DNA of 64,000 nucleotides from Aphanomyces cochlioides. Taxonomy: Eukaryota > Oomycota > Saprolegniomycetes > Saprolegniales > Verrucalvaceae. How positions within the stretch are numbered: the first letter of the stretch is position 1; the number at the start of each line of letters is the position of its first letter. Positions 32,423 to 55,664 of the stretch are shown piece after piece. Location of the stretch: NCBI GenBank assembly GCA_019828595.1, contig JAHQRK010000024.1:930001-994000 (forward strand), in the 5' to 3' direction. The position numbers and the translations under genes were made by a program. The notes below the pieces were generated by a model. That model was not told the DNA's origin, did not search any database, and was given only the letters and a program-made list of their open reading frames with translations.

Positions 32423-33388
32423 AACGACCAGGGTGCCCTCGATCAAAACAATAGCAAGAAATACAACATCCTCACGATCCACATTGACCACTTTTCGAAG
32501 AATCAATCGACATATCATTGCCACTCGTCCTGCATTACATGCCGAACTCTAAGGGTATCATTCGCAAGAAAAATTCTTGAGGGACATTATTGTTCATTTG
32601 ACACGAATTTTCTCAGTTTGGGACAATTTGCTTGCCATGCTTCAAGAAAAATGTAGCGGGATTTTTATTATGATCTGGACCCAGGGTTTCATGCAATTAT
32701 TGAGAACTCCTGAAGCCATAAATTTCAAGCTGGTTATGTATTTCACATGTAGAGTGCCTCGTGAACTTTCATTGGTCTCTTGTATTTTTGTCACTGCATC
32801 CCACATCTCGTTGTCATCACTTTCTTTTGACTCGACTGCGTTGAGAGTGGCATATCTTTACTCTAGTTGTGAGTACGTATTCGTGAAATGAATTCTGCGA
32901 TTCCCTGAAAATGTTGCCTGTTCACAAACACGATATCTAGAATCTGGTGGAACTTTCTCGGCAATAATTGCCATGTATTGCGTGGACATAGACAGTGATG
33001 AGAAACCCCAAGAGGGCGCGTAAACACCCAGTATCAAGTTCTAGCTGACCTTTATCTAAGCCCAGCATGCCACCACAGGTGACTTTGGTAGGAGAACATT
33101 CCTAGATCTTTCGAGCCTGACATTGAATCCTTTGGTGAAGGACTCACTCAGGTCAGAATTCGCTGAGATTATTTGTCTTGCTTGCTAAAACAAGTGTGAC
33201 TTCTGCGTACTTCGGTAGTTTAAATTTAGCAAGGTTGTCGACGAATGGACAGTAGATTTGACACAAGCAAAACGGAAACTGTTGTAATGGCATTATGTCG
33301 GCGCAAATGATACGTCAGTTCTTGAAATAGATTCAGCATTGTATTAATAGAGGCAAAATGCGTACCGAGGTGCCAGTTTTCATTTACA
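32423..33388. other. Gene-poor region upstream of the elicitin cluster
   Basis: This is 966 bp with only short, unconvincing open frames. It holds the promoter region of the first elicitin-repeat pseudogene. No repeat or RNA gene was recognised. Confidence 0.4.
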
Positions 33389-36300: not shown

Positions 36301-37346
36301 CTCTAAACTTGACATGCCAGAGACTTCAATTGTCGTTCAATCGACCCAATTGCAATAACCTACCCATGATTGGTGTACTACCAGACGAATGCAGCGGCTC
36401 AACATATTATATTGCAGATTATCTTGAATCGTACGACGTCATGGCGTACAAGAGCAATTGTAAAAATCCATCTTGTGTTGACAAAATTACGACTAGCATC
36501 TTGGGTCTTTCAGATTGTCAGATTAATTGGCCAGCTGCAGGTGGTGCGCCTATTTCTCCCAAAACTCTCTACTTAAGCTACTTTACTGGCATGTGCAACC
36601 TGTCTAGCACTCTAATCACCTCAGTGGACTTCAGCTCATGGTCCGCAAACTTGTCAGCCCTCTACACTGCAACATTCTCATATAGCTGCAATGTAAATCT
36701 CAGTACTTCCACTGCGTACATTCTCCAGACTGCATTCCAAGGCGATTATTTACATAAGTCCCAAAAAATCGCATTGAATGCGTATTGCAAGGAAGACATA
36801 TCAATCATGAAAGGTCTTCTTGCCGCTATCGGCAGCTGTGCCGCTGATTTGGTATATGCTTCCAATGTGCTCGAAAAAGTAATGAACACACCATACACGG
36901 CCAATCTAACTCTTTCAGTCTGTACCCAATCCCAGATTTCAACATTGAATGTACTTTTGGCTGGAGAAGCATCAGCATTTTGCTTCGTCAACTCTTACAG
37001 TGTTACTTGGAGCGAACTTCTCTTACCCAACCGTATTTCCGACATCGCGCCGTTTGCGAATAATACTAATTGTGTGAATGCAGCGGTAGCCTTCGCGAAA
37101 ACACTGCCTTCTTGTGAATGGGCCGAATTATCGAAAGGACACATTCTCACTGGAGTTGACGCCGCAACCCGAGTGACAAGCTTTCTACTTGCAGCGCGGT
37201 CGTCCACCCAAGCCACAAACACAACGACATCTTCCTCATGTCACTACACTGTTGCAAGTTCATTGCTGATTGCTGAAGTTGTCTTTTTCTTTACGTTGCT
37301 TGCATATATTCTAATTAATGCAATCTCTAAGTTCAAAAGATTTTAA
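33389..37346 (+). pseudogene. Elicitin-repeat gene copy 1, broken by a stop and frameshifts
   Basis: ATG 33389 starts a signal peptide and first elicitin-like module like those of the intact paralogues, but codon 60 is TGA (33566-33568) and the frame changes by about 33590. Paired compensating shifts scramble about 34725-34800. Further shifts occur near 35650 and 36165. Three repeat units, a Tyr/Pro/Ser-rich linker (about 35910-36100) and a hydrophobic C-terminal segment (LLIAEVVFFFTLLAYILI) can all be followed. Long frames remain open (33570-35735, 36186-37346), so decay is recent. It may be a pseudogene or an allele misread by sequencing. Confidence 0.85.
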
Positions 37347-37603
37347 GCACCAATTGGCACTGCCCAATATCGTGGATGAAGCTGTGCGCCGGTGTAAGCT
37401 GCCCAGTCGACGACAAATAGAACATTTCCCTCGTCAAGTAGACACCTCTATCCATCACAGTTTGGTATGTGAATTACAGCTAACTTGTTCCATATATATA
37501 TGTACTACGAATCAAGTTTCAAGTCCGATCGGGTATTTGCTGTGGTGGATGTACACACCATGGTAACTTCTCCAATACTAGTACAGCTGTACATCGGCCC
37601 CAA

Positions 37604-37867
37604 GCATGAAATGCCTTGAAAATTTGTGGCAGCGAAAGCAATGTCGTTCCGACAGGCGCTCTGTGTACATGCAAGGGGGATATAGTCTCGAAGCGACGTG
37701 AGGAAATCAATGGGTTTAGTACTGGTGTTCCACGGACCAACTGACAAGCATGCCGCGGACAAAGTAACATTCTTGAAGTAGTTCAGAGTGGACAAGAGCC
37801 CGGCACTGGAGCAATTGGCAGCAGAGGTGATCACACCATACACGACCAATGCAACGAGAGTCTTCAT
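37604..37867 (-). pseudogene. 5' fragment of an elicitin-repeat gene, cut at the arm edge
   Basis: Codons 1-88 of the gene at 51826 are repeated here (start ATG 37867) with one visible residue difference. The match ends exactly at 37604, in the middle of the first elicitin module, after which the frame runs into unrelated sequence. The whole 5' flank (37868-38717) is also duplicated, so the fragment may still have a promoter. Confidence 0.9.
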
Positions 37868-38717
37868 GGTAAAGTGAAGAGTGAGACTTCACACGAGTTC
37901 GCCCATGAGTTGCGATGTGCCTATTTTAAGAACTCACACATCATATCCGCGCGGCCGTAGTTGCTCAAATGATTTTTTTGCTACGAGCTTACTGTTAGTG
38001 AGCTGATACTACACCGTCGTGCATTCTTTGAGCCATGTGGATGGATGGCTCTTGATCAAGTCAACATTCCTTGACAGAAATATCTAGACGAGAATTGTAA
38101 AGCACTCCTCTCAGGATAATTAATACCCGATCTAAATAGAAAAGTTCACAAGACAAGCAGGCGAACATGTCTCGCATGTGATTTCAATTTTAATGAGTCA
38201 AAGGAATTCAAAGTATATCATAGCGCATACAATCGATCAACACAGAGCGAGAGAATTTCGAGTTCTGCCTGAGGAGGTCAGTGCTGAAACTTATGTGGAC
38301 AAGATGCAGCGATGAGTAGACATCAAACTGGTTCGAGATAAGCAGAGCCTTCCTCGCCAGGGTAAATCATTCCAAAATTAAACTCGAGGAAAGTTGAGAA
38401 TCTTGGGCGATCAAAAAGCTTTACTGAACACGACTAAGAAAGTTTTTCCAAGAGAATGTGTATTCCCTGTTTGCAACACTGGAAGTGAATCGCGGCTTTG
38501 CATCAACCAATCGCTAAAAGCAATGAGAAAGCTATATTTGGCGACCGTTCCAACGACAGGATAACGGATTCAGGTGCGAACTGCGGCGAGTTGTCATGTG
38601 CACGATAAACACGCCATTGACTCTAGAGCTCGCAATGGGATGAACTGCTTTCGTTGCAAACACATATTTGTCGTGCTTTGACACGTTGCACTTGCTTGAA
38701 TCATTTCGTGGCTGCAT

Positions 38718-39359
38718 CAATATCTCCGTGAAAAAATCACAAGGGCAAGTGCAAACACGTGACAGATCAACGGAGATCTCGAGTTTTTCCTCCAGGCTGG
38801 TAAAGTTGACGTTGTGGCATGTTTGAATGAATGCGCTGCTAGCAGAAAATTTGACAGTCTATTTCTTGCATCAACGCCACTAGATTAGCCCATTCACACA
38901 ACGGAAAGTTCTTGGTCATGGTCAATGCGACTTCCAGGCAATCTGTCTTGTTGGCGACGGAGCTAAGCCAGTCAAGTAGCTGGGCAAGAGCACATCACCA
39001 AAAAAAAAAAACTTCAGTATGATTGGTGCTACATGAAGAATTTACACTTGAGATTGACGCAGATTCTCGGCTGCACGTTCCAGACTGATAACTTGATTAG
39101 AGGATGCTTGAACGTTGACCTTGATTCAAAACCTAATGGAGTCTTTAACACAAGAAACGGAGGCATCGAATAGCATCTCCAATTGCATTAGCTTCGCCAT
39201 ATCCCATCCTACATACTGAAGCGTATAGCTCTGGCTTCAGCTCGTCACAATTGTTGAAGTCGTGCGAAAATAAGTAGGTTTGACTGTTTGGCTTCACTGA
39301 CCAAGAGAAAGGCACGATGCCGAGAGAGTGCTCTGGTAATACGCAAATATGGCTGACAT
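38718..39359 (-). pseudogene. Collapsed relic of an elicitin-repeat unit (left-arm copy)
   Basis: Mirror of the relic at 50335-50975. Start-of-unit and end-of-unit pieces can be read in broken frames, but the middle of the unit is lost. It lies 314 bp downstream of the intact gene. Confidence 0.75.
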
Positions 39360-39673
39360 ATGAACTCGTCGACATAGACAGTGTAAACCAGCAATCAAAT
39401 CGTATTTGGTCGTAGCAGACTCAAGGGTGCAAGAAGGACTTCGCATCCTGAATCATCACACATTAACAAAACTTTGACTCAATAGCAGCACTATTATTCA
39501 CGGCGATATGAGGTTGACAAAAATTCACATAATCTACGAAGAAGCCAAGCTATACCTATCCAGTGATAGGAAGGGCTATGCACCAAATGACACCTGAGAT
39601 GACTTGACGCTGTTTGCCCTAACTTTACGACAAATACAATGCATTCAGATGCGGAATGTGCATTGAGAAGAAT

Positions 39674-42600
39674 CTATTCAAGAGCATGGGAAAAGAAAAG
39701 CGCCATGAAGAGCAATGGAGATGATGCCACGATCTTCCAAGCTGTTGACGTTGATGTAGTAGACTGGGCAACAGATTTAGTAGCCACCAGAAAACTGGAC
39801 ACTCTTGTCGTTGCATCCACGCCAGTGACAATGTCTCCTCTCGTTGGATCGGCCCATTCACATGGTGGTAAGTTTTTTGCTACGGCTAGAGCTGCTTCGA
39901 TACAATCTGTCTTGTTGACGAATGAAACCAAGTCAGCCAAGTGGCTGGGCAAGAGCACGTCACTCCATGATACAACTTTCGTCGTGTTTGTGTAGCAAGA
40001 TGCTGATGCTGGACTTGCAAGGAGTGTAGTTCCAGCGGCAAATTGTGTTTTGGTACAGAGTGGAATACTTGTGTTTGCAGAATGCGATGTAGCTAACACT
40101 TTTTGCAACACTTCCGATGCAAAGACAAGGCCAGAGGCACAGCCATTGAGGGTAGCAAGACGAGCTTTCATGACTGCTATGTCTCCCATGCAAGCAGCAT
40201 TCAGTGCAATCTTTTGGATTTGATGTACGTAATCGCCCATGAAAGCAGTCTCAAGTACGTATTGTTTTGCGCCGAGAGCTGCGATGCAAGCCGAAGAAAA
40301 TGGTGTCGTGTACAGTGCTGCCAACTGACCAGGACATATGCCATAATCGACTGTCGTGCTTACTGGAAGGCTGCACATTCCAGACAAGAAGCTCGAATAT
40401 AGCATTTTCGGTGAAATTGGTGCGCTCCCAGCAGTGGGCCAGTCAACTTGACAATCGGAGAGTCCACCGATACGAGTTGCAATTGAAGCGACGCAATCCG
40501 AGGAGTTACATATTGAGTTGTACGTCAACAATGAAGACGGCTCGATCAAATCCAACAATGAAGTTGTGCCTGGGACGATATCAAAGCATTGGACTGTCAT
40601 TGATCCTATGTCAGGTGGAACTGTGCATGTGGATAGAGAAAAAGACAAAGGGAGTCGTTGACAAAGCGATACGAGACCATCCATGGCTGCGCCAATCATT
40701 TGGGCTTCGTCACAAGACATCTTCTTAAAGTTTGTTGCGCTGGCCGCAATGTCAGCACGGCATGAGGATTGAAAACAGGCAAATGGAATAAAAGGCTGAA
40801 GTGTTGTGAGAAAATCTGTAGGTTTTGCAGTTTGGTTCCATGGACCAAAAGAAAGACAAGTTGACGAGAGAGGAAGGGTCTGGAAGTAGGCAAACATGGC
40901 TGACTGATCGGATGACAAACACGAAGTTGATGCTGGTGAGGTTGATGACGGCGGTGGTGATTGAGGAGGTGACGAAGATGGCGACGACGGTGGTGATTGA
41001 GAAGTCGTGGTGGGGGGACTCGTTGAGCTATTAGTTGACGAACTATTTGATGGAGTTGGTGTCCTGTATGATGCTGTAGTTGAGGGAGGACTGTAAGTTG
41101 ATGGTGTGTAATAGGTGTATGGTGGTGGGTAATAGTAATACGGGGAAGGTGTTGGATAGTAGTAAGTAGTTGATGGGGTATAGTTTGAGGGTGTTGTTGT
41201 CAGGTTGGATGAATTTCGGAAGACAGATTGAGCGGCCACAAGGAAGCTGGATACACGGGTTGACACATTTATGCCCACAAGAGACTCTCCACCACTTAAG
41301 TCGATCCATTCACAGGCAGGAAATGTCTTGGCATACTCGAGCGCAGCAGTAACACAGGCTTGGGAGAGAGAGGACAAGTCAGACATGTGAGATGGAAGAA
41401 ACACTTGAGACCATGACGTTAGGCCTAGAGAGATACATGAGTACGGTGGAGCTGCGTTCAAAAGTGTTGTAATGTTGGATTGGTTGCATCTTGGAAGATT
41501 AGCTGTCGATGTGTAAATTGTCGACCACACCACTTGCAACGTCTGAAGAGCAAAACTGACTGTTGATGAGCAATTGGCTTTGTACGCGAGAGCCACGACA
41601 TCCAGAATACACGCTGGAACACTTGCAAGAAATCGGCTCATCACCAAGTAATTTCCAGTGAGTGCTGTCTCGACAATATACATGCCAGCGGTCACATTCG
41701 TTTGATTGACAAATGTGTTTCTGTAGGCTTGATTGCAAGTCTTGGAGAACGGAGTGGAGTACAGCGAAGCTGTTACAGCCGAACACGAAGAAAAGTCATT
41801 GTATGGAGCACTCCATCCACACAAGTATGGAGAATAGCCGTACCACCAATAATTCGTGCACATATCGTAGCCACACAAGGCATTGAGGTACGTCTTGTAG
41901 AGCGATTTTGGCGACACTGGTGCACCAGCGAACGCTGGCCACTCCACTTGACAATCGGGCAGTGTGGAAATGCGGTTGAATAAAGCTGTTGCGCAGTCTG
42001 TGTAACACGTTCCATTGATTGCTGTCATGTTGGAGGGAAAGAAAAGATCTAGGATGGTAGGTGTCCTTGGTGCCACAATTGACGCAAAGCATTGGGCTGG
42101 AAGAGATCCCAAATCCAATGAGTCGCTGTCGGTGCACATGCGAGTGGTAGTGGCGACTGTCAAAGCTTTGCAAATACTCACAATTCTGTTCATACCATCC
42201 GTTAAGCTTCTCGATTCATCGCAGTAGATGCTTCCCAAATTGGATGCGCTCGTTTGAAAGTCTGCACGACAAGCGCTTTGCGAGCATGCCAGTGGAATGT
42301 ATGACTGGAGGCTTGTTAGGAAGTCGATGGGTCGTGTTGTTGCATTCCATGGACCAAATTTTAAACAAGCCGATGAGAGAGTAACATTTCGGTAATAAGA
42401 GAAGGTAGCTTGCATGCTCTGGCGACTGCAGCTCGTTGGTGATATTGTTGTTGGTAGCGTTGGTGGCACTGCTATTGTAGACGCCGCAGCGACAAGAAAG
42501 CTTGAAAAACGTGAAGATGCATTGATGCCCATAGAAAGTCCGGAATCATCAATCCATTCACAGGATGGAAACGTTTTGACAAAAGACAAAGCAGCGGAGA

Positions 42601-43726
42601 CGCATGTTGATGACGCCGCAATCGTTAGCAGGTTCAGCAGCCGACTGGGCAGAAGCACGTCCAACCAAGTCGAAACTGCAACTCCTAAATTCATACAAGA
42701 CGATGAAGGAGGCGAATTCAACAGAGCTGTCAAAGTGGAAGTCGCTGAAGCATTGCAAACCGTGATATTTGGTGACGAGACCGAGTTTTGCCATACTGAC
42801 TGTAGAATCTGAAGGGCACTGAGGAGTGATAGACTACAGCCGTTTGTCATTCGAGCTTGAAGCGTCGCAACATCAGCCATGCACGACAGATCAGTGCTGA
42901 GGAGATGGCTCTGAAGAAGGTAGTTACCCTGCGTTGTCGTCTGGAGAATATAAGCCATAGATCTATTTAAGACTGCATTGCTGCACGTCGTTGAAAATGG
43001 AGTTGCATATAATGATGCCAATTGAGCCGAGCAGGACGTGAAATCATTGTATGGAGCGCCCCAAGAGCATATGTATGACACGTTTCCATTCCACCAGTAG
43101 TAGCACAAGTCGTAGCCACACATTGCATTGACAAAAGTCTTGTAAACAGCTTTCGTCGACATGGGAGCTCCACCAAAGTACTGCCAATCCGTCGCACAAT
43201 CTGGCAAAGTGTTGATGCGATTCAACATCGAGGTCACGCAAGATGAATTGCATGTCATCGTGTAGGTTGACAAGTCGGCCGGCATGACTAAATCAAGAAG
43301 GCCGGCGGCAGTTGGAACGAGTCCATAACATTGAGAAGTAAGAGCTCCCAAGTCGAGATAATCGTTAGGTTCACATCTTGCTGCAGTTGGCGATGTCACC
43401 GACAGAGAGAGACAAATCTTGCGGACACCATCGAGTGCAATACTTAGAGCTTGAGCTTCATCGCAGCGAATATTTTGAAAATTCGATACCGCAGTATCAA
43501 AGTCAGAGCGGCAAGCACTCTGGGAGCAAGCAAGGGGAATATAATCTCGCTGAGAGGAGAGGAAATCGATTGGTTTGGCAGTGGAATTCCACGGTCCTGC
43601 TTGCAAGCATGGCCTTGACATAGGTACGTTCTTGAAGTAGTTCAACATGGACGTGAGGCCTGAACTGCTGCAGTTCGCAGCAAAGACAGTCGCCCCCGCG
43701 ATCCCAAGTGCGAAGAGTGCCTTCAT
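39674..43726 (-). CDS. Elicitin-repeat surface protein, 1,350 aa (left-arm copy)
   Basis: An uninterrupted frame starts at ATG 43726 and has a signal peptide (about 1-17, cut before NCSSSG). There are three units of about 400 residues. Each opens with a six-Cys elicitin-like module (C-x4-C as CSQSAC or CFQSSC). Units 1 and 2 also hold a second C-x4-C block (CGYDLC, CGYDMC), and all units hold further Cys-rich stretches ending in LPPCEW/FPSCEW and SSFLVAA. A linker of about 90 residues between units 2 and 3 is rich in Tyr, Pro, Ser and Thr. Many Asn-x-Ser/Thr sites occur. The C terminus ends in a short hydrophobic stretch with no cytoplasmic tail, which fits a GPI signal. Elicitins bind sterols; that this protein does so is inference. 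It is nearly identical to the copy at 45965. Confidence 0.9.
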   Translation of the reverse strand: MKALFALGIAGATVFAANCSSSGLTSMLNYFKNVPMSRPCLQAGPWNSTAKPIDFLSSQRDYIPLACSQSACRSDFDTAVSNFQNIRCDEAQALSIALDGVRKICLSLSVTSPTAARCEPNDYLDLGALTSQCYGLVPTAAGLLDLVMPADLSTYTMTCNSSCVTSMLNRINTLPDCATDWQYFGGAPMSTKAVYKTFVNAMCGYDLCYYWWNGNVSYICSWGAPYNDFTSCSAQLASLYATPFSTTCSNAVLNRSMAYILQTTTQGNYLLQSHLLSTDLSCMADVATLQARMTNGCSLSLLSALQILQSVWQNSVSSPNITVCNASATSTLTALLNSPPSSSCMNLGVAVSTWLDVLLPSRLLNLLTIAASSTCVSAALSFVKTFPSCEWIDDSGLSMGINASSRFSSFLVAAASTIAVPPTLPTTISPTSCSRQSMQATFSYYRNVTLSSACLKFGPWNATTRPIDFLTSLQSYIPLACSQSACRADFQTSASNLGSIYCDESRSLTDGMNRIVSICKALTVATTTRMCTDSDSLDLGSLPAQCFASIVAPRTPTILDLFFPSNMTAINGTCYTDCATALFNRISTLPDCQVEWPAFAGAPVSPKSLYKTYLNALCGYDMCTNYWWYGYSPYLCGWSAPYNDFSSCSAVTASLYSTPFSKTCNQAYRNTFVNQTNVTAGMYIVETALTGNYLVMSRFLASVPACILDVVALAYKANCSSTVSFALQTLQVVWSTIYTSTANLPRCNQSNITTLLNAAPPYSCISLGLTSWSQVFLPSHMSDLSSLSQACVTAALEYAKTFPACEWIDLSGGESLVGINVSTRVSSFLVAAQSVFRNSSNLTTTPSNYTPSTTYYYPTPSPYYYYPPPYTYYTPSTYSPPSTTASYRTPTPSNSSSTNSSTSPPTTTSQSPPSSPSSSPPQSPPPSSTSPASTSCLSSDQSAMFAYFQTLPLSSTCLSFGPWNQTAKPTDFLTTLQPFIPFACFQSSCRADIAASATNFKKMSCDEAQMIGAAMDGLVSLCQRLPLSFSLSTCTVPPDIGSMTVQCFDIVPGTTSLLDLIEPSSLLTYNSICNSSDCVASIATRIGGLSDCQVDWPTAGSAPISPKMLYSSFLSGMCSLPVSTTVDYGICPGQLAALYTTPFSSACIAALGAKQYVLETAFMGDYVHQIQKIALNAACMGDIAVMKARLATLNGCASGLVFASEVLQKVLATSHSANTSIPLCTKTQFAAGTTLLASPASASCYTNTTKVVSWSDVLLPSHLADLVSFVNKTDCIEAALAVAKNLPPCEWADPTRGDIVTGVDATTRVSSFLVATKSVAQSTTSTSTAWKIVASSPLLFMALFFSHALE

Positions 43727-44184
43727 GGCGAAATGCACAGTGAACCAGCCATTGCAGTGTTCGTTTTCATCATGAATTGGTCTATTTCTGGACTCGTCGT
43801 TTTGCTTAAGCCGCCATCATCTGCTTCCATGATGAAACGCATGTCGGACTGCATGTCGCCGTCTTATCGGACTGCTTGGTGGTTTTTAGTGGTGTGCCAA
43901 AGCAAGCGCAAGAGTGCAGAGTCGTCGGAAAGCGCTGTGGAATGATAGACATCACTCCATGACGCCAAAACCAACGTGAAACGTAATACGTACCTCTCTA
44001 CGCTTGACAAAAGACGTCGGGATCGTATCGACGAGGGGTTTGACAGCTAGACGCGATGACCATGTTCTTGAGATTCCTCTTGGAGTTATCTCCAAGCAAT
44101 TGTGCTTTGGACATGTCCAACTTGTTTGTGTGAGATCTGGGGTGCCATCTGCTTATTGGCCCAATAGCGTGACTGGTGACCGAT
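43727..44184. promoter_or_regulatory. Divergent promoter between elicitin-repeat gene and methyltransferase
   Basis: A 458-bp region separates the two ATGs. The same region, reversed, is at 45507-45964 in the right arm, where it faces only a stub of the methyltransferase. A 75-codon plus frame (44004-44228) is open, but it overlaps the methyltransferase start in another frame and has no family features. Confidence 0.5.
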
Positions 44185-44880
44185 ATGGAGCAAGGCCACA
44201 TAGCGTGCTATCGGACGGCGACGATTGAGATTCGCGTTACTCAAGACACAAGACGAGTGGATGGTATGGGCGGAGAAGTATGGCCAGGGGCACATGTCCT
44301 CTGTGCGCACTTGGAAACGAACGCTGGAGCTTTGAAGCTCAAACATGCTCGCGTTTTGGAACTCGGTGCTGGCTGTGGTCTCTGCGGTCTGGTTGCATCT
44401 GCCTTGGGAGCACCTGCCGTCGTATTGAGTGATGAATTCCCCGACATGCTCGAGAGGAATATCGAGCTGAACGCAGCCTGGCTGACAGAGTCTGTTGCAG
44501 TGAAGACGATCGAATGGGGAGAACAAAGCCATGCAGATGAAACATTTGACATCGTTCTGGGCAGTGAAATTACTCAAGTGGGTCGAAAGGCACACCAGCC
44601 GCTTGTTGAAACGATTGCGTGGTCTCTCAAGACGGGATGCGTTGCGTTACTCTCGATGGACGCATGCAATGAGGATTGCCAAGGTGTGTGCGATATTACA
44701 AAGTGCACAGCGTCCCATTTCATCAACATTGCGCGAATCAACGGATTTACCGTCATGAAGCATCCCTCTGTCAAGCTGACATCTTTGAAATCTGTCACAC
44801 GGTGCGTTGGTGCTCTTGGTCGACCGTGGCCGTTGGATGGAACAGAGTACAGCGCCGTCTTCGAGCTGCGGAAAGCGTAG
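44185..44880 (+). CDS. METTL21/EEF2KMT-type protein methyltransferase, 231 aa
   Basis: A single exon starts at ATG 44185 (a GTG in frame lies at 44176). The Methyltransf_16 pattern is clear: GGEVWPGAHVLC (29-40), SAM-binding motif VLELGAGCGLCG (57-68), the acidic residue in VVLSDE (79-84), and DIVLGSEI in the post-motif position. Most members are SAM-dependent protein lysine methyltransferases acting on chaperones or elongation factors; the substrate here is unknown. The first 77 bp lie in the left palindrome arm and the rest in the spacer, so the gene crosses the arm edge undamaged. No second complete copy exists. Confidence 0.85.
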   Translation: MEQGHIACYRTATIEIRVTQDTRRVDGMGGEVWPGAHVLCAHLETNAGALKLKHARVLELGAGCGLCGLVASALGAPAVVLSDEFPDMLERNIELNAAWLTESVAVKTIEWGEQSHADETFDIVLGSEITQVGRKAHQPLVETIAWSLKTGCVALLSMDACNEDCQGVCDITKCTASHFINIARINGFTVMKHPSVKLTSLKSVTRCVGALGRPWPLDGTEYSAVFELRKA

Positions 44881-45086
44881 AAACTCAAACCTAACGAAGA
44901 GACACATGCTGCAACATATACTTTATCAATCTCAACGTCGTAGATGTTAGATTGCACTGCAATCCACGAAGACAAAGGGCCGTACGATTGCTCATCTGCT
45001 TGCTGCTTCTTGTCATGAGCCTCCAGGCTAAACAACCTCACTGCAGTATCGCCACGGAGTTCAAAGGTGGCCAAGGGATATATGAA
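44881..45086 (-). other. Possible gene fragment, about 65 codons
   Basis: The minus frame reads PLATFELRGDTAVRLFSLE, then SYGPLSSWIAVQSNIYDVE and KVYVAACVSSL, which looks protein-like. The frame stays open into the antisense of the methyltransferase, but no start or splice site was found. It may be a broken piece of an unrelated gene left in the spacer, or chance. Confidence 0.25.
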
Positions 45087-45129
45087 TTACCTCATCTTGA
45101 CTCTATACAACCCCAAAGATGAAAGCTAC

Positions 45130-45429
45130 CCTCCGACGACGAAGAATGCAAAGACAAAATTGCAATCCCACGTCGGGGAACGGCGAAGATTTCATGAGCG
45201 ACTGCGTTGCAAGCAGAAAACGAGTCATTCGGGGAGTTGCATCGACGCGATTTGCAACGTGTCCTCTCGATACATCAGTCCATTCAATTCTTTGGCAAAG
45301 GCTATCGCAGCGTCGACACAGCCTGGCAAACTAGCAAAAGAGACCAGGCCGGAGATTGGCCTGGCAAGAGCACGTCACCCCAAGCGACAGTTTTCGAGTT
45401 GACGACGCACGGGACGCGGATGCTTGGCT
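45130..45429 (-). pseudogene. Relic of the 3' part of an elicitin-repeat gene in the spacer
   Basis: In three shifting frames the minus strand gives NSKTVAWGDVLLPG, then LVSFASLPGCVDAAIAFAKE, then DVSRGHVANRVDATPRM and RFLLATQS. These match in order the closing block of the last repeat unit of the intact proteins (VVSWSDVLLPS, CIEAALAVAKN, DIVTGVDATTR, SFLVATKS). The block begins at the right-arm inner edge, so its upstream part was lost or moved. Confidence 0.75.
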
Positions 45430-45506
45430 TCCACTCGTCTTGTGTCTTGAGTAACGCGAATCTCAATCGTCGCCGTCCGATAGCACGCTATGTGGCCTTG
45501 CTCCAT
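45430..45506 (-). pseudogene. 5' stub of the methyltransferase gene (25 codons)
   Basis: Codons 1-25 are identical to 44185-44261. The match stops at the right-arm inner edge and runs into the elicitin relic. Together with its duplicated promoter region it could still be transcribed, but it can give no enzyme. Confidence 0.9.
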
Positions 45507-45964
45507 ATCGGTCACCAGTCACGCTATTGGGCCAATAAGCAGATGGCACCCCAGATCTCACACAAACAAGTTGGACATGTCCAAAGCACAATTGCTTGGA
45601 GATAACTCCAAGAGGAATCTCAAGAACATGGTCATCGCGTCTAGCTGTCAAACCCCTCGTCGATACGATCCCGACGTCTTTTGTCAAGCGTAGAGAGGTA
45701 CGTATTACGTTTCACGTTGGTTTTGGCGTCATGGAGTGATGTCTATCATTCCACAGCGCTTTCCGACGACTCTGCACTCTTGCGCTTGCTTTGGCACACC
45801 ACTAAAAACCACCAAGCAGTCCGATAAGACGGCGACATGCAGTCCGACATGCGTTTCATCATGGAAGCAGATGATGGCGGCTTAAGCAAAACGACGAGTC
45901 CAGAAATAGACCAATTCATGATGAAAACGAACACTGCAATGGCTGGTTCACTGTGCATTTCGCC

Positions 45965-48900
45965 ATGAAGGCACTCTTCGCACTTGGGATCGCGGGGGCG
46001 ACTGTCTTTGCTGCGAACTGCAGCAGTTCAGGCCTCACGTCCATGTTGAACTACTTCAAGAACGTACCTATGTCAAGGCCATGCTTGCAAGCAGGACCGT
46101 GGAATTCCACTGCCAAACCAATCGATTTCCTCTCCTCTCAGCGAGATTATATTCCCCTTGCTTGCTCCCAGAGTGCTTGCCGCTCTGACTTTGATACTGC
46201 GGTATCGAATTTTCAAAATATTCGCTGCGATGAAGCTCAAGCTCTAAGTATTGCACTCGATGGTGTCCGCAAGATTTGTCTCTCTCTGTCGGTGACATCG
46301 CCAACTGCAGCAAGATGTGAACCTAACGATTATCTCGACTTGGGAGCTCTTACTTCTCAATGTTATGGACTCGTTCCAACTGCCGCCGGCCTTCTTGATT
46401 TAGTCATGCCGGCCGACTTGTCAACCTACACGATGACATGCAATTCATCTTGCGTGACCTCGATGTTGAATCGCATCAACACTTTGCCAGATTGTGCGAC
46501 GGATTGGCAGTACTTTGGTGGAGCTCCCATGTCGACGAAAGCTGTTTACAAGACTTTTGTCAATGCAATGTGTGGCTACGACTTGTGCTACTACTGGTGG
46601 AATGGAAACGTGTCATACATATGCTCTTGGGGCGCTCCATACAATGATTTCACGTCCTGCTCGGCTCAATTGGCATCATTATATGCAACTCCATTTTCAA
46701 CGACGTGCAGCAATGCAGTCTTAAATAGATCTATGGCTTATATTCTCCAGACGACAACGCAGGGTAACTACCTTCTTCAGAGCCATCTCCTCAGCACTGA
46801 TCTGTCGTGCATGGCTGATGTTGCGACGCTTCAAGCTCGAATGACAAACGGCTGTAGTCTATCACTCCTCAGTGCCCTTCAGATTCTACAGTCAGTATGG
46901 CAAAACTCGGTCTCGTCACCAAATATCACGGTTTGCAATGCTTCAGCGACTTCCACTTTGACAGCTCTGTTGAATTCGCCTCCTTCATCGTCTTGTATGA
47001 ATTTAGGAGTTGCAGTTTCGACTTGGTTGGACGTGCTTCTGCCCAGTCGGCTGCTGAACCTGCTAACGATTGCGGCGTCATCAACATGCGTCTCCGCTGC
47101 TTTGTCTTTTGTCAAAACGTTTCCATCCTGTGAATGGATTGATGATTCCGGACTTTCTATGGGCATCAATGCATCTTCACGTTTTTCAAGCTTTCTTGTC
47201 GCTGCGGCGTCTACAATAGCAGTGCCACCAACGCTACCAACAACAATATCACCAACGAGCTGCAGTCGCCAGAGCATGCAAGCTACCTTCTCTTATTACC
47301 GAAATGTTACTCTCTCATCGGCTTGTTTAAAATTTGGTCCATGGAATGCAACAACACGACCCATCGACTTCCTAACAAGCCTCCAGTCATACATTCCACT
47401 GGCATGCTCGCAAAGCGCTTGTCGTGCAGACTTTCAAACGAGCGCATCCAATTTGGGAAGCATCTACTGCGATGAATCGAGAAGCTTAACGGATGGTATG
47501 AACAGAATTGTGAGTATTTGCAAAGCTTTGACAGTCGCCACTACCACTCGCATGTGCACCGACAGCGACGACTCATTGGATTTGGGATCTCTTCCAGCCC
47601 AATGCTTTGCGTCAATTGTGGCACCAAGGACACCTACCATCCTAGATCTTTTCTTTCCCTCCAACATGACAGCAATCAATGGAACGTGTTACACAGACTG
47701 CGCAACAGCTTTATTCAACCGCATTTCCACACTGCCCGATTGTCAAGTGGAGTGGCCAGCGTTCGCTGGTGCACCAGTGTCGCCAAAATCGCTCTACAAG
47801 ACGTACCTCAATGCCTTGTGTGGCTACGATATGTGCACGAATTATTGGTGGTACGGCTATTCTCCATACTTGTGTGGATGGAGTGCTCCATACAATGACT
47901 TTTCTTCGTGTTCGGCTGTAACAGCTTCGCTGTACTCCACTCCGTTCTCCAAGACTTGCAATCAAGCCTACAGAAACACATTTGTCAATCAAACGAATGT
48001 GACCGCTGGCATGTATATTGTCGAGACAGCACTCACTGGAAATTACTTGGTGATGAGCCGATTTCTTGCAAGTGTTCCAGCGTGTATTCTGGATGTCGTG
48101 GCTCTCGCGTACAAAGCCAATTGCTCATCAACAGTCAGTTTTGCTCTTCAGACGTTGCAAGTGGTGTGGTCGACAATTTACACATCGACAGCTAATCTTC
48201 CAAGATGCAACCAATCCAACATTACAACACTTTTGAACGCAGCTCCACCGTACTCATGTATCTCTCTAGGCCTAACGTCATGGTCTCAAGTGTTTCTTCC
48301 ATCTCACATGTCTGACTTGTCCTCTCTCTCCCAAGCCTGTGTTACTGCTGCGCTCGAGTATGCCAAGACATTTCCTGCCTGTGAATGGATCGACTTAAGT
48401 GGTGGAGAGTCTCTTGTGGGCATAAATGTGTCAACCCGTGTATCCAGCTTCCTTGTGGCCGCTCAATCTGTCTTCCGAAATTCATCCAACCTGACAACAA
48501 CACCCTCAAACTATACCCCATCAACTACTTACTACTATCCAACACCTTCCCCGTATTACTATTACCCACCACCATACACCTATTACACACCATCAACTTA
48601 CAGTCCTCCCTCAACTACAGCATCATACAGGACACCAACTCCATCAAATAGTTCGTCAACTAATAGCTCAACGAGTCCCCCCACCACGACTTCTCAATCA
48701 CCACCGTCGTCGCCATCTTCGTCACCTCCTCAATCACCACCGCCGTCATCAACCTCACCAGCATCAACTTCGTGTTTGTCATCCGATCAGTCAGCCATGT
48801 TTGCCTACTTCCAGACCCTTCCTCTCTCGTCAACTTGTCTTTCTTTTGGTCCATGGAACCAAACTGCAAAACCTACAGATTTTCTCACAACACTTCAGCC

Positions 48901-50020
48901 TTTTATTCCATTTGCCTGTTTTCAATCCTCATGCCGTGCTGACATTGCGGCCAGCGCAACAAACTTTAAGAAGATGTCTTGTGACGAAGCCCAAATGATT
49001 GGCGCAGCCATGGATGGTCTCGTATCGCTTTGTCAACGACTCCCTTTGTCTTTTTCTCTATCCACATGCACAGTTCCACCTGACATAGGATCAATGACAG
49101 TCCAATGCTTTGATATCGTCCCAGGCACAACTTCATTGTTGGATTTGATCGAGCCGTCTTCATTGTTGACGTACAACTCAATATGTAACTCCTCGGATTG
49201 CGTCGCTTCAATTGCAACTCGTATCGGTGGACTCTCCGATTGTCAAGTTAACTGGCCCACTGCTGGGAGCGCACCAATTTCACCGAAAATGCTATATTCG
49301 AGCTTCTTGTCTGGAATGTGCAGCCTTCCAGTAAGCACGACAGTCGATTATGGCATATGTCCTGGTCAGTTGGCAGCACTGTACACGACACCATTTTCTT
49401 CGGCTTGCATCGCAGCTCTCGGCGCAAAACAATACGTACTTGAGACTGCTTTCATGGGCGATTACGTACATCAAATCCAAAAGATTGCACTGAATGCTGC
49501 TTGCATGGGAGACATAGCAGTCATGAAAGCTCGTCTTGCTACCCTCAATGGCTGTGCCTCTGGCCTTGTCTTTGCATCGGAAGTGTTGCAAAAAGTGTTA
49601 GCTACATCGCATTCTGCAAACACAAGTATTCCACTCTGTACCAAAACACAATTTGCCGCTGGAACTACACTCCTTGCAAGTCCAGCATCAGCATCTTGCT
49701 ACACAAACACGACGAAAGTTGTATCATGGAGTGACGTGCTCTTGCCCAGCCACTTGGCTGACTTGGTTTCATTCGTCAACAAGACAGATTGTATCGAAGC
49801 AGCTCTAGCCGTAGCAAAAAACTTACCACCATGTGAATGGGCCGATCCAACGAGAGGAGACATTGTCACTGGCGTGGATGCAACGACAAGAGTGTCCAGT
49901 TTTCTGGTGGCTACTAAATCTGTTGCCCAGTCTACTACATCAACGTCAACAGCTTGGAAGATCGTGGCATCATCTCCATTGCTCTTCATGGCGCTTTTCT
50001 TTTCCCATGCTCTTGAATAG
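45965..50020 (+). CDS. Elicitin-repeat surface protein, 1,351 aa (right-arm copy)
   Basis: This is a mirror copy of the gene at 39674-43726 with one extra Asp codon (near 47570) and one Asn for Asp (about 49249). Layout is signal peptide 1-17, units at about 18-440, 445-845 and 935-1325, Tyr/Pro/Ser-rich linker at about 845-935 (48480-48775), and a hydrophobic C terminus ending in HALE. ATG 45965 is chosen over a GTG 12 bases upstream because it begins the signal peptide. Both copies have complete frames, so both may be expressed. No introns are seen, unlike most housekeeping genes around. Confidence 0.9.
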   Translation: MKALFALGIAGATVFAANCSSSGLTSMLNYFKNVPMSRPCLQAGPWNSTAKPIDFLSSQRDYIPLACSQSACRSDFDTAVSNFQNIRCDEAQALSIALDGVRKICLSLSVTSPTAARCEPNDYLDLGALTSQCYGLVPTAAGLLDLVMPADLSTYTMTCNSSCVTSMLNRINTLPDCATDWQYFGGAPMSTKAVYKTFVNAMCGYDLCYYWWNGNVSYICSWGAPYNDFTSCSAQLASLYATPFSTTCSNAVLNRSMAYILQTTTQGNYLLQSHLLSTDLSCMADVATLQARMTNGCSLSLLSALQILQSVWQNSVSSPNITVCNASATSTLTALLNSPPSSSCMNLGVAVSTWLDVLLPSRLLNLLTIAASSTCVSAALSFVKTFPSCEWIDDSGLSMGINASSRFSSFLVAAASTIAVPPTLPTTISPTSCSRQSMQATFSYYRNVTLSSACLKFGPWNATTRPIDFLTSLQSYIPLACSQSACRADFQTSASNLGSIYCDESRSLTDGMNRIVSICKALTVATTTRMCTDSDDSLDLGSLPAQCFASIVAPRTPTILDLFFPSNMTAINGTCYTDCATALFNRISTLPDCQVEWPAFAGAPVSPKSLYKTYLNALCGYDMCTNYWWYGYSPYLCGWSAPYNDFSSCSAVTASLYSTPFSKTCNQAYRNTFVNQTNVTAGMYIVETALTGNYLVMSRFLASVPACILDVVALAYKANCSSTVSFALQTLQVVWSTIYTSTANLPRCNQSNITTLLNAAPPYSCISLGLTSWSQVFLPSHMSDLSSLSQACVTAALEYAKTFPACEWIDLSGGESLVGINVSTRVSSFLVAAQSVFRNSSNLTTTPSNYTPSTTYYYPTPSPYYYYPPPYTYYTPSTYSPPSTTASYRTPTPSNSSSTNSSTSPPTTTSQSPPSSPSSSPPQSPPPSSTSPASTSCLSSDQSAMFAYFQTLPLSSTCLSFGPWNQTAKPTDFLTTLQPFIPFACFQSSCRADIAASATNFKKMSCDEAQMIGAAMDGLVSLCQRLPLSFSLSTCTVPPDIGSMTVQCFDIVPGTTSLLDLIEPSSLLTYNSICNSSDCVASIATRIGGLSDCQVNWPTAGSAPISPKMLYSSFLSGMCSLPVSTTVDYGICPGQLAALYTTPFSSACIAALGAKQYVLETAFMGDYVHQIQKIALNAACMGDIAVMKARLATLNGCASGLVFASEVLQKVLATSHSANTSIPLCTKTQFAAGTTLLASPASASCYTNTTKVVSWSDVLLPSHLADLVSFVNKTDCIEAALAVAKNLPPCEWADPTRGDIVTGVDATTRVSSFLVATKSVAQSTTSTSTAWKIVASSPLLFMALFFSHALE

Positions 50021-50334
50021 ATTCTTCTCAATGCACATTCCGCATCTGAATGCATTGTATTTGTCGTAAAGTTAGGGCAAACAGCGTCAAGTCATCTCAG
50101 GTGTCATTTGGTGCATAGCCCTTCCTATCACTGGATAGGTATAGCTTGGCTTCTTCGTAGATTATGTGAATTTTTGTCAACCTCATATCGCCGTGAATAA
50201 TAGTGCTGCTATTGAGTCAAAGTTTTGTTAATGTGTGATGATTCAGGATGCGAAGTCCTTCTTGCACCCTTGAGTCTGCTACGACCAAATACGATTTGAT
50301 TGCTGGTTTACACTGTCTATGTCGACGAGTTCAT

Positions 50335-50975
50335 ATGTCAGCCATATTTGCGTATTACCAGAGCACTCTCTCGGCATCGTGCCTTTCTCTTGGTCAGTGA
50401 AGCCAAACAGTCAAACCTACTTATTTTCGCACGACTTCAACAATTGTGACGAGCTGAAGCCAGAGCTATACGCTTCAGTATGTAGGATGGGATATGGCGA
50501 AGCTAATGCAATTGGAGATGCTATTCGATGCCTCCGTTTCTTGTGTTAAAGACTCCATTAGGTTTTGAATCAAGGTCAACGTTCAAGCATCCTCTAATCA
50601 AGTTATCAGTCTGGAACGTGCAGCCGAGAATCTGCGTCAATCTCAAGTGTAAATTCTTCATGTAGCACCAATCATACTGAAGTTTTTTTTTTTGGTGATG
50701 TGCTCTTGCCCAGCTACTTGACTGGCTTAGCTCCGTCGCCAACAAGACAGATTGCCTGGAAGTCGCATTGACCATGACCAAGAACTTTCCGTTGTGTGAA
50801 TGGGCTAATCTAGTGGCGTTGATGCAAGAAATAGACTGTCAAATTTTCTGCTAGCAGCGCATTCATTCAAACATGCCACAACGTCAACTTTACCAGCCTG
50901 GAGGAAAAACTCGAGATCTCCGTTGATCTGTCACGTGTTTGCACTTGCCCTTGTGATTTTTTCACGGAGATATTG
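50335..50975 (+). pseudogene. Collapsed relic of an elicitin-repeat unit (right-arm copy)
   Basis: At about 50337-50430 the frame reads MSAIFAYYQSTLSASCLSLG, a stop, then SQTVKPTYF, matching the opening of unit 3 of the intact protein (SAMFAYFQT...CLSFGPWNQTAKPTDF). At 50690-50960 shifting frames give GDVLLPSYLTGLA, NKTDCLEVALTMTKN, LCEWAN, VDARNRLSNFLLAAHS and a hydrophobic tail, matching the end of unit 3. About 250 residues between them are missing. Confidence 0.8.
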
Positions 50976-51825
50976 ATGCAGCCACGAAATGATTCAAGCA
51001 AGTGCAACGTGTCAAAGCACGACAAATATGTGTTTGCAACGAAAGCAGTTCATCCCATTGCGAGCTCTAGAGTCAATGGCGTGTTTATCGTGCACATGAC
51101 AACTCGCCGCAGTTCGCACCTGAATCCGTTATCCTGTCGTTGGAACGGTCGCCAAATATAGCTTTCTCATTGCTTTTAGCGATTGGTTGATGCAAAGCCG
51201 CGATTCACTTCCAGTGTTGCAAACAGGGAATACACATTCTCTTGGAAAAACTTTCTTAGTCGTGTTCAGTAAAGCTTTTTGATCGCCCAAGATTCTCAAC
51301 TTTCCTCGAGTTTAATTTTGGAATGATTTACCCTGGCGAGGAAGGCTCTGCTTATCTCGAACCAGTTTGATGTCTACTCATCGCTGCATCTTGTCCACAT
51401 AAGTTTCAGCACTGACCTCCTCAGGCAGAACTCGAAATTCTCTCGCTCTGTGTTGATCGATTGTATGCGCTATGATATACTTTGAATTCCTTTGACTCAT
51501 TAAAATTGAAATCACATGCGAGACATGTTCGCCTGCTTGTCTTGTGAACTTTTCTATTTAGATCGGGTATTAATTATCCTGAGAGGAGTGCTTTACAATT
51601 CTCGTCTAGATATTTCTGTCAAGGAATGTTGACTTGATCAAGAGCCATCCATCCACATGGCTCAAAGAATGCACGACGGTGTAGTATCAGCTCACTAACA
51701 GTAAGCTCGTAGCAAAAAAATCATTTGAGCAACTACGGCCGCGCGGATATGATGTGTGAGTTCTTAAAATAGGCACATCGCAACTCATGGGCGAACTCGT
51801 GTGAAGTCTCACTCTTCACTTTACC
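50976..51825. other. Upstream region of elicitin-repeat gene copy 3 (within the arm)
   Basis: This 850-bp stretch has no supported gene. A 62-codon open frame (50973-51161) has no family features. It is mirrored at 37868-38717. Confidence 0.4.
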
Positions 51826-54800
51826 ATGAAGACTCTCGTTGCATTGGTCGTGTATGGTGTGATCACCTCTGCTGCCAATTGCTCCAGTGCCGGGCTCTTG
51901 TCCACTCTGAACTACTTCAAGAATGTTACTTTGTCCGCGGCATGCTTGTCAGTTGGTCCGTGGAACACCAGTACTAAACCCATTGATTTCCTCACGTCGC
52001 TTCGAGACTATATCCCCCTTGCATGTACACAGAGCGCCTGTCGGAACGACATTGCTTTCGCTGCCACAATTTTTCAAGGCATTTCATGCGATGAAGCTCA
52101 AGCAATTGGTCTCGCTCTGAATGGTATTGGTAATATATGTCCATCATTGACGTTGGCGAATTCGACGGCAACAAGATGCTCCACTTCAGATTCAATGGAT
52201 TTAGGAACTATCACCGCTCAATGTTATGGCCTCATTCCGAATGCAACCATTTTTTCCGATGTTATCATGCCGACTGATTTGTCGTCTTTCTATAATACCT
52301 GCAGTGATTCTTGCTTGACCTCCATGCTCAATCGCATCGCCAAATTGCCAACTTGTGTAACCTACTGCCAGCCTTTGGTGGAGCTCCAATATCGATGCAG
52401 ACCGTTTATCAGACTTATATCTATTCAATGTGTCGCAAGAATTTGTGCTATGACTATTGGGGCAGTGCGTATTTGTGTTCTTGGTATGCGCCAAACAATG
52501 ACTATACGTCATGCTCATCTCAATTGGCAACAATATATACAACACGATTTTCTACGTCGTGTAGGAATGCAGTCTTTAACGGCTCGATGGCTTATATTCT
52601 CCAGACGAGCACGCAAGGCAACTATCTACTCCAGAGTCACCGCCTTGGAATCGAACCATTGTGCCGGGCTGACGTCGCTGCATTGCCCTCACAACTTACC
52701 AATAATTGCACGTCACCACTCGCGAGTGGCCTGCAAATTTTGCAAACAGTATGGCAAAACAATATATCATACCCCAATATCTCGATCTGCAATGCCTCGT
52801 TGACTGTTGCTTTGAACGCACTCTTGGCCTCTCCACCCCCACCAGTATGTGCAAATTTGGGTGTGAACGTTGCCACTTGGTTAGTTGTGTTGCTACCTGC
52901 TCGCTCGACTGACTTACTAAATATTTCCTCGTCGTCGGCTTGTTTCTCTGCCGCAATGAATTTTGTCAAGTCTTTTCCATCTTGAGAGTGGCTTGACGCT
53001 TCAGGATTGCCTATGGGTATGAATGCATCCACGCGATTTTCAAGTTTCCTTGTCGCCGCGAATAATACCTTGCCGCCACCAGTACCAACAACAATGTCCC
53101 CTTCAAGTTGCAATCAACCAAGTACGCAAGCACTTTTTTTCGTACTACCAAAACCAGACGCTCTCGTCAGTATGCTCACAATATTTACCGTGGAGTACGA
53201 CAGTAAGATCTATCGACTTTTTGTCAACCCTTCAATCGTTTATCCCCCTTGCATGCTCGCAAAGCACTTGCCGGGCTGACTTGAAGCTAGCACTAACAAC
53301 GTAGCAAGCCTCAACTGTGACGAAGCTAAAATTTTATCGGTTGGCATGAGCAAAATTGTTAGCATATGCAAGACGTTGACAGTTGCAACGAATTCGAGCA
53401 TGTGCTCCGATTCAGAATCATTTGATATGGGACCCCTTCCATTGGCGTGCGCTAACTCCATTGCAACTACGACTATACCTAAAGTACTTGATATCATTTT
53501 TACTCCCAATTTGACTGCAATCGATGGAATCTGTACGCATGATTGCTTGAAAGCGCTCATTAGCCGCATCAATACTACCCTCCCAAACTGTCAAGTAGAA
53601 TGGCCCTACCTTGCTCGTGCGCCAGTGTCGCCAAAAATGCTCTACAAGACATATCTCAATGCAGTATACGGCTACGACATTTGCTTTGGCTACATTTATT
53701 GGTATGGATCTTGGTCAGAACTGTGTGCTTGGAACGCGACTTCAAATAATTTTTCATTGTGTTCGGCTCAGCTGGCGTCACTCTACTCAGTTCCATTTTC
53801 CTCGACGTGCTACCAAGCATATAAGAACACTTTCGGCAATCAGACAATCCTACTGGGAAGAATGAACATAATTGAGACGGTACTAACAGGTCTTGATTTT
53901 GTGAAGAGTCGATTCCTCGCTGCAAGAATTAACTGCCCGTCGTCAATCAGTGTTGGCTTCAAAACACTACGAACCATTTGGTCAACTAATTACACCCCAA
54001 CGCCAGGGTTGAACAAATGCAACCAAAGCACGCTGGCAACCCTGTTGAGTGCCCCACTGCCATATGCCTGCTACTCTAATGGCTTTTCATCGTGGACTCA
54101 AGTGTTTTTACCGTACAATTTATCAAGTTTATCATCCATTCCTCGAGCTTGTGCCATTGCTGCACTTGCTTATACCGATACATTCCCGGCATGCGAATGG
54201 ATCGACGAGGACGTTGGTGAGACACTAGTTGGAATCAATATTTCGACACGAGTCTCGAGCTTTCTGGTCGCAGCACAAAACTTGCCTCGCCCAAGCTTAA
54301 CTATTTCGCTTCCTACTTCTAGCCCACTATTATATTACTACCCCACTCCAGCACCTACAAACTACTACCCCTCTTCATCGCCTTCTACGCTCCCGTCATG
54401 TTACTGGGCAACAAACAGCGAGTCTGCTCTGTTCAAAAATTACCAGAGTGTTAATCTATCCTCGGTATGCCTTGCGTTTGGCCCATGGGATCAAGGCACT
54501 CGGGCTATCGATTTTATCTGGCGCTACCCAGATTACATTCCATTGGCATGTTTCCAACCTGCGTGCCGAGCAGATATTGAGGCAAGTGCAGCAAACTTTG
54601 GTAGCCTGTCGTGCGCTGAATCATTGGAAATGACACTTGAACTGAGTGGCCTTCTTTCTCTCTGCCAGAGGCTTTCTCTTGCCCTTGACGAACCACTTTG
54701 TGACGACTGGCCCAATTTGGGTTCGATACCTTCTGAATGCGTTGGTGTTGCAACTTCCGGCTCGACTACTTTTTTAGAGCTGATCCGCTCTGATAACCTT

Positions 54801-55664
54801 GCAGCCATGGACCGAATCACGTGTTACTCGATGAGCTGCACAGCTACGATATCTGACAGTATTAACTCACTCCCTGACTGTAAAATGGAGCTTCAACTTG
54901 CTGGTGGAGCACCCATTTCTCCGAAAATGCTCTACTCAAGCACCTTCACAGCATTTTGCAACAGCAGCGCTCTGGCAAAAGTAGATTACAACTCATGTTC
55001 ATCTCAACTTGCAGCTCTCTACACGATACCATTTTCTAAAACTTGCAATATGGTGTTATCTAGTATTCCCATGAAATTGTACGTCCTCCAGACTGCATTT
55101 ACGGGTGATTATATCCATCAGGCTCAGAAGATTGCCGCGACGCCTGCTTGTATGCAAGACGTTGCTGTTATGAGAGAACGCCTGGCAAATGTCTCTAGCT
55201 GTGCACCAGATCTTGTGTTTGCATCAAACGAACTCCAGAAAGTTCTTACCACGACGTACATCAGTGACCGAAATCTTCCACTTTGCTCAGAATCACAGAT
55301 TTCCTCTGGAATTAGTCTCCTGAAAACTTCGGCGGCGGCGTCATGCACATTCAACTCGAAAAGACCTACATGGACAAATATTCTTTTGCCAGACCATTTG
55401 TCCGACTTGGCGAAATTCGTGAACAATACTGATTGCGTAGATGCTGCATTAGCGATTGCAAAGTCCTTGCCCAATTGCGAATGGGCCAGTGTTACCAACG
55501 GGGATATCATCACCGGTGTTAATGTGGCAACTCGAACATCAAGTTTTCTATTAGCAGCGCAGTCTGTGAATGAGACTACGTCGACATCTTTGGCTGTACG
55601 ACGTGGATTGACGTCCTCATTGTCGATTGCCGTTCTAGCAACACTTGTGTTGCGGTGGTTGTAG
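51826..55664 (+). pseudogene. Elicitin-repeat gene copy 3, broken in its first half
   Basis: ATG 51826 starts a signal peptide and unit 1. The frame shifts near 52365 (just before the GGAP block), an in-frame TGA replaces a conserved Cys codon at about 52984, a T-run near 53130 shifts the frame again, and another shift follows at about 53290. From 53346 to 55664 the frame is open for 772 codons and covers the rest of unit 2, a Tyr/Pro linker (about 54300-54400) and unit 3 with a hydrophobic C terminus. The first 264 bp belong to the palindrome arm. The clean 3' half suggests recent loss, or gene conversion with paralogues. Confidence 0.85.

What the first reader, a model, noticed from the sequence alone, without database searches (positions are those of the whole stretch)
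37604..52089. Near-perfect 14.5-kb palindrome: 6.66-kb inverted arms around a 1.17-kb spacer
The arms carry the same genes, intergenic sequence and relics in mirror order. Coordinates of matched features sum to a constant within 3 bases, and only four differences were noticed. Arms this long and this alike imply either very recent duplication or ongoing arm-to-arm gene conversion, as in primate Y palindromes. Such structures are rarely described in oomycetes, and this one centres on a secreted-protein family.
Basis: seen in the sequence. Interest (0 to 1): 0.9.

Follow-up and report, generated by a model that had tools for sequence, protein, structure and literature searches.

The report
Gene palindrome from a staggered inversion
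A 14.5-kb stretch of a water-mould genome (likely a species of Aphanomyces) consists of two mirror-image halves that differ at only four places, each carrying a copy of a predicted secreted-protein gene, around one methyltransferase gene; it is likely the scar of one small inversion whose ragged break was copied twice during repair, which would be a one-step way to double a gene.

Summary
A whole-assembly search finds the full arm only here. Of the four junctions, two are native. At J2 the methyltransferase gene crosses the join inside a conserved motif, and its A. euteiches orthologue is 95% identical over the full length. At J4 paralogues stay homologous straight through. J1 and J3 are new. 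This polarity gives an ancestral order [left flank]-[spacer reversed]-[arm]-[right flank], with all family genes in one orientation; the left-flank adjacency is inferred. Today's order is that segment inverted with the arm kept twice, the footprint described for inversions with a staggered break; the joins show 0-1 bp of microhomology. Replicative template switching gives the same layout and is the main rival. Youth or conversion of the arms is undecided. Two further single-copy palindromes lie within 117 kb, with higher arm divergence. The arm gene has a predicted elicitin-like fold. The spacer gene now sits between two inward-facing copies of its own upstream region, which predicts antisense RNA. 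No reads were available, so an assembly error is unlikely but not excluded.

The parts
37604..44261 (+). left arm (6,658 bp)
   Evidence: 99.91% identical to the reverse complement of 45430-52089
45430..52089 (-). right arm (6,660 bp)
44262..45429 (+). single-copy spacer
   Evidence: one match in the assembly
37603..37604 (.). J1, outer left junction: new join
   Evidence: paralogue homology starts only inside the arm, none in the 300 bp outside
44261..44262 (.). J2, inner left junction: native
   Evidence: methyltransferase gene crosses it inside a conserved motif
45429..45430 (.). J3, inner right junction: new join
   Evidence: the right-arm copy of the methyltransferase start runs into antisense spacer and soon a stop
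52089..52090 (.). J4, outer right junction: native
   Evidence: homology to paralogues runs continuously across it
39674..43726 (-). left copy of the arm gene (1,350 aa, three ~410-aa Cys-rich repeats; signal-like start and hydrophobic C-terminal tail judged by eye)
45965..50020 (+). right copy of the arm gene (1,351 aa)
44185..44880 (+). methyltransferase gene (Methyltransf_16), first 77 bases in the left arm, rest in the spacer
   Evidence: (PF10294, 1.5e-21)
45430..45506 (-). truncated start of the methyltransferase gene in the right arm
43727..44184 (.). shared upstream region of arm gene and methyltransferase (left copy)
   Evidence: promoter role inferred
45507..45964 (.). second copy of that upstream region, facing into the spacer from the right
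   Evidence: mirror of the left copy
45184..45409 (-). C-terminal relic of the family at the outer end of the spacer, frameshifted
   Evidence: 6e-11 to the arm gene
38765..39057 (-). C-terminal family relic inside the left arm
50643..50928 (+). C-terminal family relic inside the right arm
   Evidence: 4e-18
37604..37867 (-). copied 5' end of the right-flank family gene, cut at J1
51826..55664 (+). right-flank family gene, frame interrupted, native across J4
33380..37346 (+). left-flank family gene, frame interrupted
56396..61672 (+). intact family gene with four repeats (1,758 aa)

Best explanation
The palindrome is likely the footprint of one small inversion in a tandem array of predicted secreted-protein genes, in which one break was likely staggered by 6.66 kb, so that this stretch was filled in twice and now lies in mirror image on both sides of the inverted 1.17-kb methyltransferase segment. 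Shown: J2 and J4 are native, J1 and J3 are not; reversed spacer, arm and right flank therefore belong together in that order. Inferred: the free end of the spacer once joined the left flank, and the ends were rejoined with little or no microhomology. Consequences, from sequence: two open copies of the arm gene, each with the same upstream region; one intact methyltransferase; two cut gene starts as scars. Predicted: the second upstream copy drives antisense RNA through the methyltransferase, and exchange between the arms can flip the spacer without breaking that gene, because either arm supplies its start.
For: J2: the methyltransferase reads across it; 25 of 25 arm-encoded and 194 of 206 spacer-encoded residues equal the A. 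euteiches protein, and the motif that spans the join is present in 9 of the 10 relatives aligned, the tenth lacking that N-terminus in its model (10 of the 47 hits). J4: homology to the left-flank gene, to both copies of the arm gene and, more briefly, to the 1,758-aa gene runs unbroken through it, while at J1 it begins only inside the arm. In the inferred ancestral order all family genes and the relics point the same way. No multi-copy element at the junctions within 264 kb; arms and spacer are not repetitive in the assembly. Microhomology 0 bp at J1, 0-1 bp at J3, counted against the inferred ancestral order. Staggers of this size have been inferred elsewhere: a 7.1-kb duplicated segment at D. 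mojavensis inversion 2h (PMC3355041, passages).
Against: Adjacency of left flank and spacer end is not shown: the last 257 bp of the left flank match nothing else in 264 kb by DNA and no family protein at E 0.01. No uninverted relative could be read at DNA level. A 6.66-kb single-stranded overhang is long; PMC7584159 (passages) says the two-chromatid version has been favoured for that reason. The duplicated part is nearly six times longer than the inverted unique part, unlike large inversions with small duplications.
Confidence: 0.5

Rival explanations
1. Replicative template switching: a fork leaves the left flank, copies arm and spacer backwards from the other strand, then switches back to the forward strand at the start of the arm. 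No staggered break is needed.
For: Gives the identical layout and junction polarity; template-switch and fold-back routes to inverted duplications are on record (PMC10766183 abstract; PMC3907307 and PMC2621351 seen only as listing).
Against: Two switches are needed, and the joins show 0-1 bp of microhomology, where such models expect short homologies (established knowledge).
Confidence: 0.25
2. Two steps: an inverted copy of the arm was inserted between left flank and reversed spacer, and a later crossover between the arms flipped the spacer.
For: Same end state; arms this long and alike should recombine (established knowledge, no call).
Against: Needs two events; the inserted copy would have to land exactly at the edge of a single-copy segment next to its source.
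Confidence: 0.12
3. Older palindrome whose arms are kept alike by gene conversion (not exclusive of the above).
For: One of the two substitutions lies 20 bp from the outer edge, where conversion is least effective (chance about 1.2% for two random sites, post hoc).
Against: Two substitutions are too few for a test; youth alone explains them. Arm divergence differs between neighbouring palindromes (2/6658 against 9/3976, p = 0.0035), which does not suggest one common equilibrium.
Confidence: 0.25
4. Assembly artefact: chimeric or hairpin reads made one arm look like two.
For: No reads could be checked.
Against: Flanks on the two sides differ; the arms differ internally, with the right-arm state derived in the 3 of 4 differences that could be polarised; and J3 is a join that a clean inversion polymorphism of two haplotypes would not contain (inference).
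Confidence: 0.08

Closest known systems
Drosophila inversions by staggered breaks (PMC3355041, PMC5080602, PMC7584159; passages read)
   Same: originally single-copy DNA duplicated in inverted orientation at the two ends of an inverted segment; no transposon needed; duplicated gene content
   Different: there chromosomal inversions with duplications of up to some kb; here the inverted unique part is 1.17 kb and the duplication 6.66 kb, so the product is a palindrome; an oomycete, not a fly
Primate Y palindromes (as cited in PMC5490193 and PMC3681731, passages)
   Same: near-identical gene-carrying arms around a short spacer
   Different: arm-to-arm conversion and shared presence across species are not shown here; no sex chromosome involved
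Palindromes of the parthenogenetic springtail Folsomia candida (PMC5490193, passages)
   Same: gene-carrying palindromes formed by inverted duplication, 11 in that genome
   Different: the Dscam2 palindrome there has a synonymous rate of 0.2; here 0.03% substitutions overall
Palindrome on chromosome 14 of Zymoseptoria tritici (PMC3681731, passages)
   Same: large palindrome in a filamentous plant pathogen
   Different: it is flanked by transposon remnants; none found at these junctions within the 264 kb compared

Membership tests
staggered-break inversion | single-copy DNA duplicated in inverted orientation on both sides of an inverted segment | tested here: met
   that the middle is inverted is inferred from junction polarity
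staggered-break inversion | two native and two new junctions | tested here: met
staggered-break inversion | uninverted relatives have one copy only | tested here: inconclusive
   A. euteiches neighbours known only by consecutive tags and contig length; no DNA held
transposon-mediated inversion or transposon with long inverted ends | multi-copy element at the junctions | tested here: not met
   (264 kb for the junction flanks, whole assembly for arms and spacer)
Y-type palindrome under conversion | large arms above 99.9% identity, short spacer | tested here: met
   (99.91%)
Y-type palindrome under conversion | conversion shown between strains or species | not testable with these tools
   no second assembly with DNA
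ODIRA | inverted triplication | tested here: not met
   two full copies
ODIRA | short interrupted inverted repeats at the inverted joins | tested here: inconclusive
   one search scanned stems of 6 or more with loops up to 12 only; one near J1, none at J2-J4
elicitin family | match to the Pfam elicitin profile | tested here: not met
   searches list no elicitin profile at E up to 1 and 10
elicitin family | elicitin fold | tested here: inconclusive
Methyltransf_16 (PF10294) | profile match above the curated cut-off | tested here: met
   77.4 bits, cut-off 21

The most novel reading that the evidence does not exclude
This contig arm is a palindrome factory: single-copy genes are repeatedly turned into mirror pairs by inversions with long staggered breaks (arm substitutions 0.03%, 0.23% and 0.46% in three neighbours within 117 kb). 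Each event doubles a gene with its promoter in one step and can leave the gene in the middle between two inward-facing copies of its own promoter, making a flip-tolerant, antisense-regulated switch.
Probability: 0.2. Interest if true: 0.8.

Novelty: new member of a known kind. Interest (0 to 1): 0.5.

Why it matters
Gene families of secreted proteins in oomycetes grow fast, and the steps are seldom caught. Here the four junctions are sharp enough to tell old from new, so one event can be reconstructed. If right, an inversion alone doubled a large gene with its upstream region and left its neighbour intact. The cluster of palindromes makes two open questions directly testable by long reads from a few strains: whether arms are kept alike by conversion outside sex chromosomes, and whether convergent promoters silence the gene in the middle.

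Tried and rejected
Transposon origin: arms and spacer are not repetitive and no multi-copy element lies at the junctions within 264 kb. Short inverted repeats at the joins: one perfect 12-bp palindrome near J1, none with stem 6 or more and loop up to 12 at J2-J4; by my own rough estimate, from no call, about that many are expected by chance. A recalled oomycete initiator-like consensus gave only a 4-mismatch hit upstream of the arm gene: no weight. Telomere repeats: the recalled unit, four times in a row, was not found anywhere in the assembly, so 'subtelomeric' is not claimed. tRNA genes: none in the window. Pfam gave no family above its cut-off for the arm gene, a profile search of solved structures by sequence gave 0, and Foldseek gave no match at E <= 0.001 (for the module its first hit is cryptogein at E 1.2). 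A protein search with the left-flank open frame found one A. astaci protein only. An ancestral link of left flank and spacer end by sequence: no support.

Within the 264 kb read, other near-identical inverted pairs at 1038-1094 kb belong to a repeat-rich zone (one of them tested, 62 matches) and were not counted as single-copy palindromes.

Full report
Observation. The arm is found in full at these two places; the other 8 of 10 matches in the 76.2-Mb, 94-contig assembly are 65-70% paralogues on the same contig (counts are lower bounds by the tool's note). The spacer matches once. The window is C17:930001-994000 of a 1,164,830-bp contig.

Organism. The nearest proteins are A. euteiches (96% over the first 450 residues of the arm gene, where only the 7,991 best candidates were scored; 95% for the methyltransferase). 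The genus is therefore likely Aphanomyces; no call names the species. From memory, the A. cochlioides reference assembly has about this size.

Junction polarity. J2 cuts the methyltransferase gene 77 bases after its start. The protein reads through: 25 of 25 residues encoded in the arm and 194 of 206 in the spacer equal the A. euteiches protein, and the motif across the join is shared in 9 of 10 relatives aligned (the tenth model lacks this N-terminus; 10 of the 47 hits were used). So J2 is old. In the right arm the same start runs into antisense spacer after J3. At J4 a 600-bp probe centred on the join matches the left-flank gene (530 columns) and both copies of the arm gene (584 columns each) straight through the join, and the 1,758-aa gene over a shorter stretch that just crosses it; at J1 the corresponding probe matches them only inside the arm. 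So J4 is old and J1 new. An A. astaci gene model joins an IQ-motif gene like that of window 28957-30014 to a family protein, so the left end of the array is likely also old.

Reconstruction. J2 and J4 native give: reversed spacer, arm, right flank. The remaining ends, J1 and J3, must have met the rest; the simplest order is left flank, reversed spacer, arm, right flank. In that order the family genes and the relics run the same way. The relic at the spacer's outer end starts within about 20 bp of J3. The left flank's last 257 bp match nothing else in 264 kb, so this one adjacency is inferred. Today's order is the segment [reversed spacer + arm] inverted with the arm also kept in place. [quoted passage not shown] PMC5080602; PMC7584159; passages seen). 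PMC3355041 gives 7.1 kb for one such segment. The new joins have 0-1 bp microhomology, counted against the inferred order.

Age. Arms: 2 substitutions in 6,658 bp (3.0e-4, 95% interval 3.6e-5 to 1.1e-3). The two gene copies differ at 2 residue positions, against 63 of 1,350 between the left copy and A. euteiches. Three of the four differences can be polarised and all three are derived in the right arm: D to N and the extra D against P0001, N to I against a residue that is invariant in nine repeats. The homopolymer was not polarised. Youth explains this; conversion is not excluded. One substitution lies 20 bp from the outer edge, as conversion would leave it, but with two sites this is weak.

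Neighbourhood. A scan of 264 kb (C17:830001-1094000) listed 82 repeat pairs of 200 bp or more, of which the longest 60 were printed. Two more single-copy palindromes appear: 893987-898381, arms about 2.2 kb around a centre of roughly 60 bp, 10 mismatches plus 34 gap bases over the 2,197-bp halves; and 992157-996132 with 1006732-1010707, 9 mismatches in 3,976 bp, whose left arm begins inside the window at 62157. Divergence differs (2/6658 against 9/3976, p = 0.0035), so these are unlikely to be one event. Their junctions were only looked at for open frames and were not polarised. Whether this density is special is unknown, because a control region could not be fetched.

Consequence. Arm gene and methyltransferase share a 458-bp upstream stretch (43727-44184), present again at 45507-45964 facing the other way; the A. 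euteiches gene model starts earlier than the ATG used here, so part of it may be coding. The spacer therefore lies between two inward-facing copies. Antisense transcription and flipping of the spacer are predictions; nothing here measures them.

Print. In four searches I saw no paper, by title or start of abstract, that reports such a palindrome in an oomycete nuclear genome; only the top 20 of 47, 20 of 545, 15 of 6,241 and 15 of 137 papers were listed, and the library lacks most subscription journals. A large palindrome is on record for a fungal plant pathogen, Zymoseptoria tritici (PMC3681731, passages).

Noticed in passing
C17:893987-898381 (L030:3987-8381): A 4.4-kb single-copy palindrome with a centre of about 60 bp and two divergent stop-to-stop frames of 578 and 583 aa; the 583-aa frame has no Pfam match at E 0.01.
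   Followed up: partly
window 62157-64000, continuing to C17:996132, with C17:1006732-1010707 (L015:2732-6707): A third single-copy inverted pair, 3,976 bp, 99.77%, with an ankyrin-repeat gene (TRAF-finger match below its cut-off); the right copy is interrupted by about 1 kb that holds a 411-bp self-complementary element.
   Followed up: partly
C17:1038343-1094000 (L018-L023): Dense near-identical direct and inverted repeats, including tandem copies of about 5 kb; parts recur at 1.12-1.165 Mb of C17 and at low coordinates of C35.
   Followed up: partly
window 28957-30014: IQ-motif gene; in an A. astaci gene model a similar gene is joined to a member of the arm-gene family, so the two are likely neighbours there too.
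   Followed up: partly
window 45430-45506 and spacer: The right-arm copy of the methyltransferase start opens a 43-aa chimeric frame into the antisense strand of the spacer.
   Followed up: no
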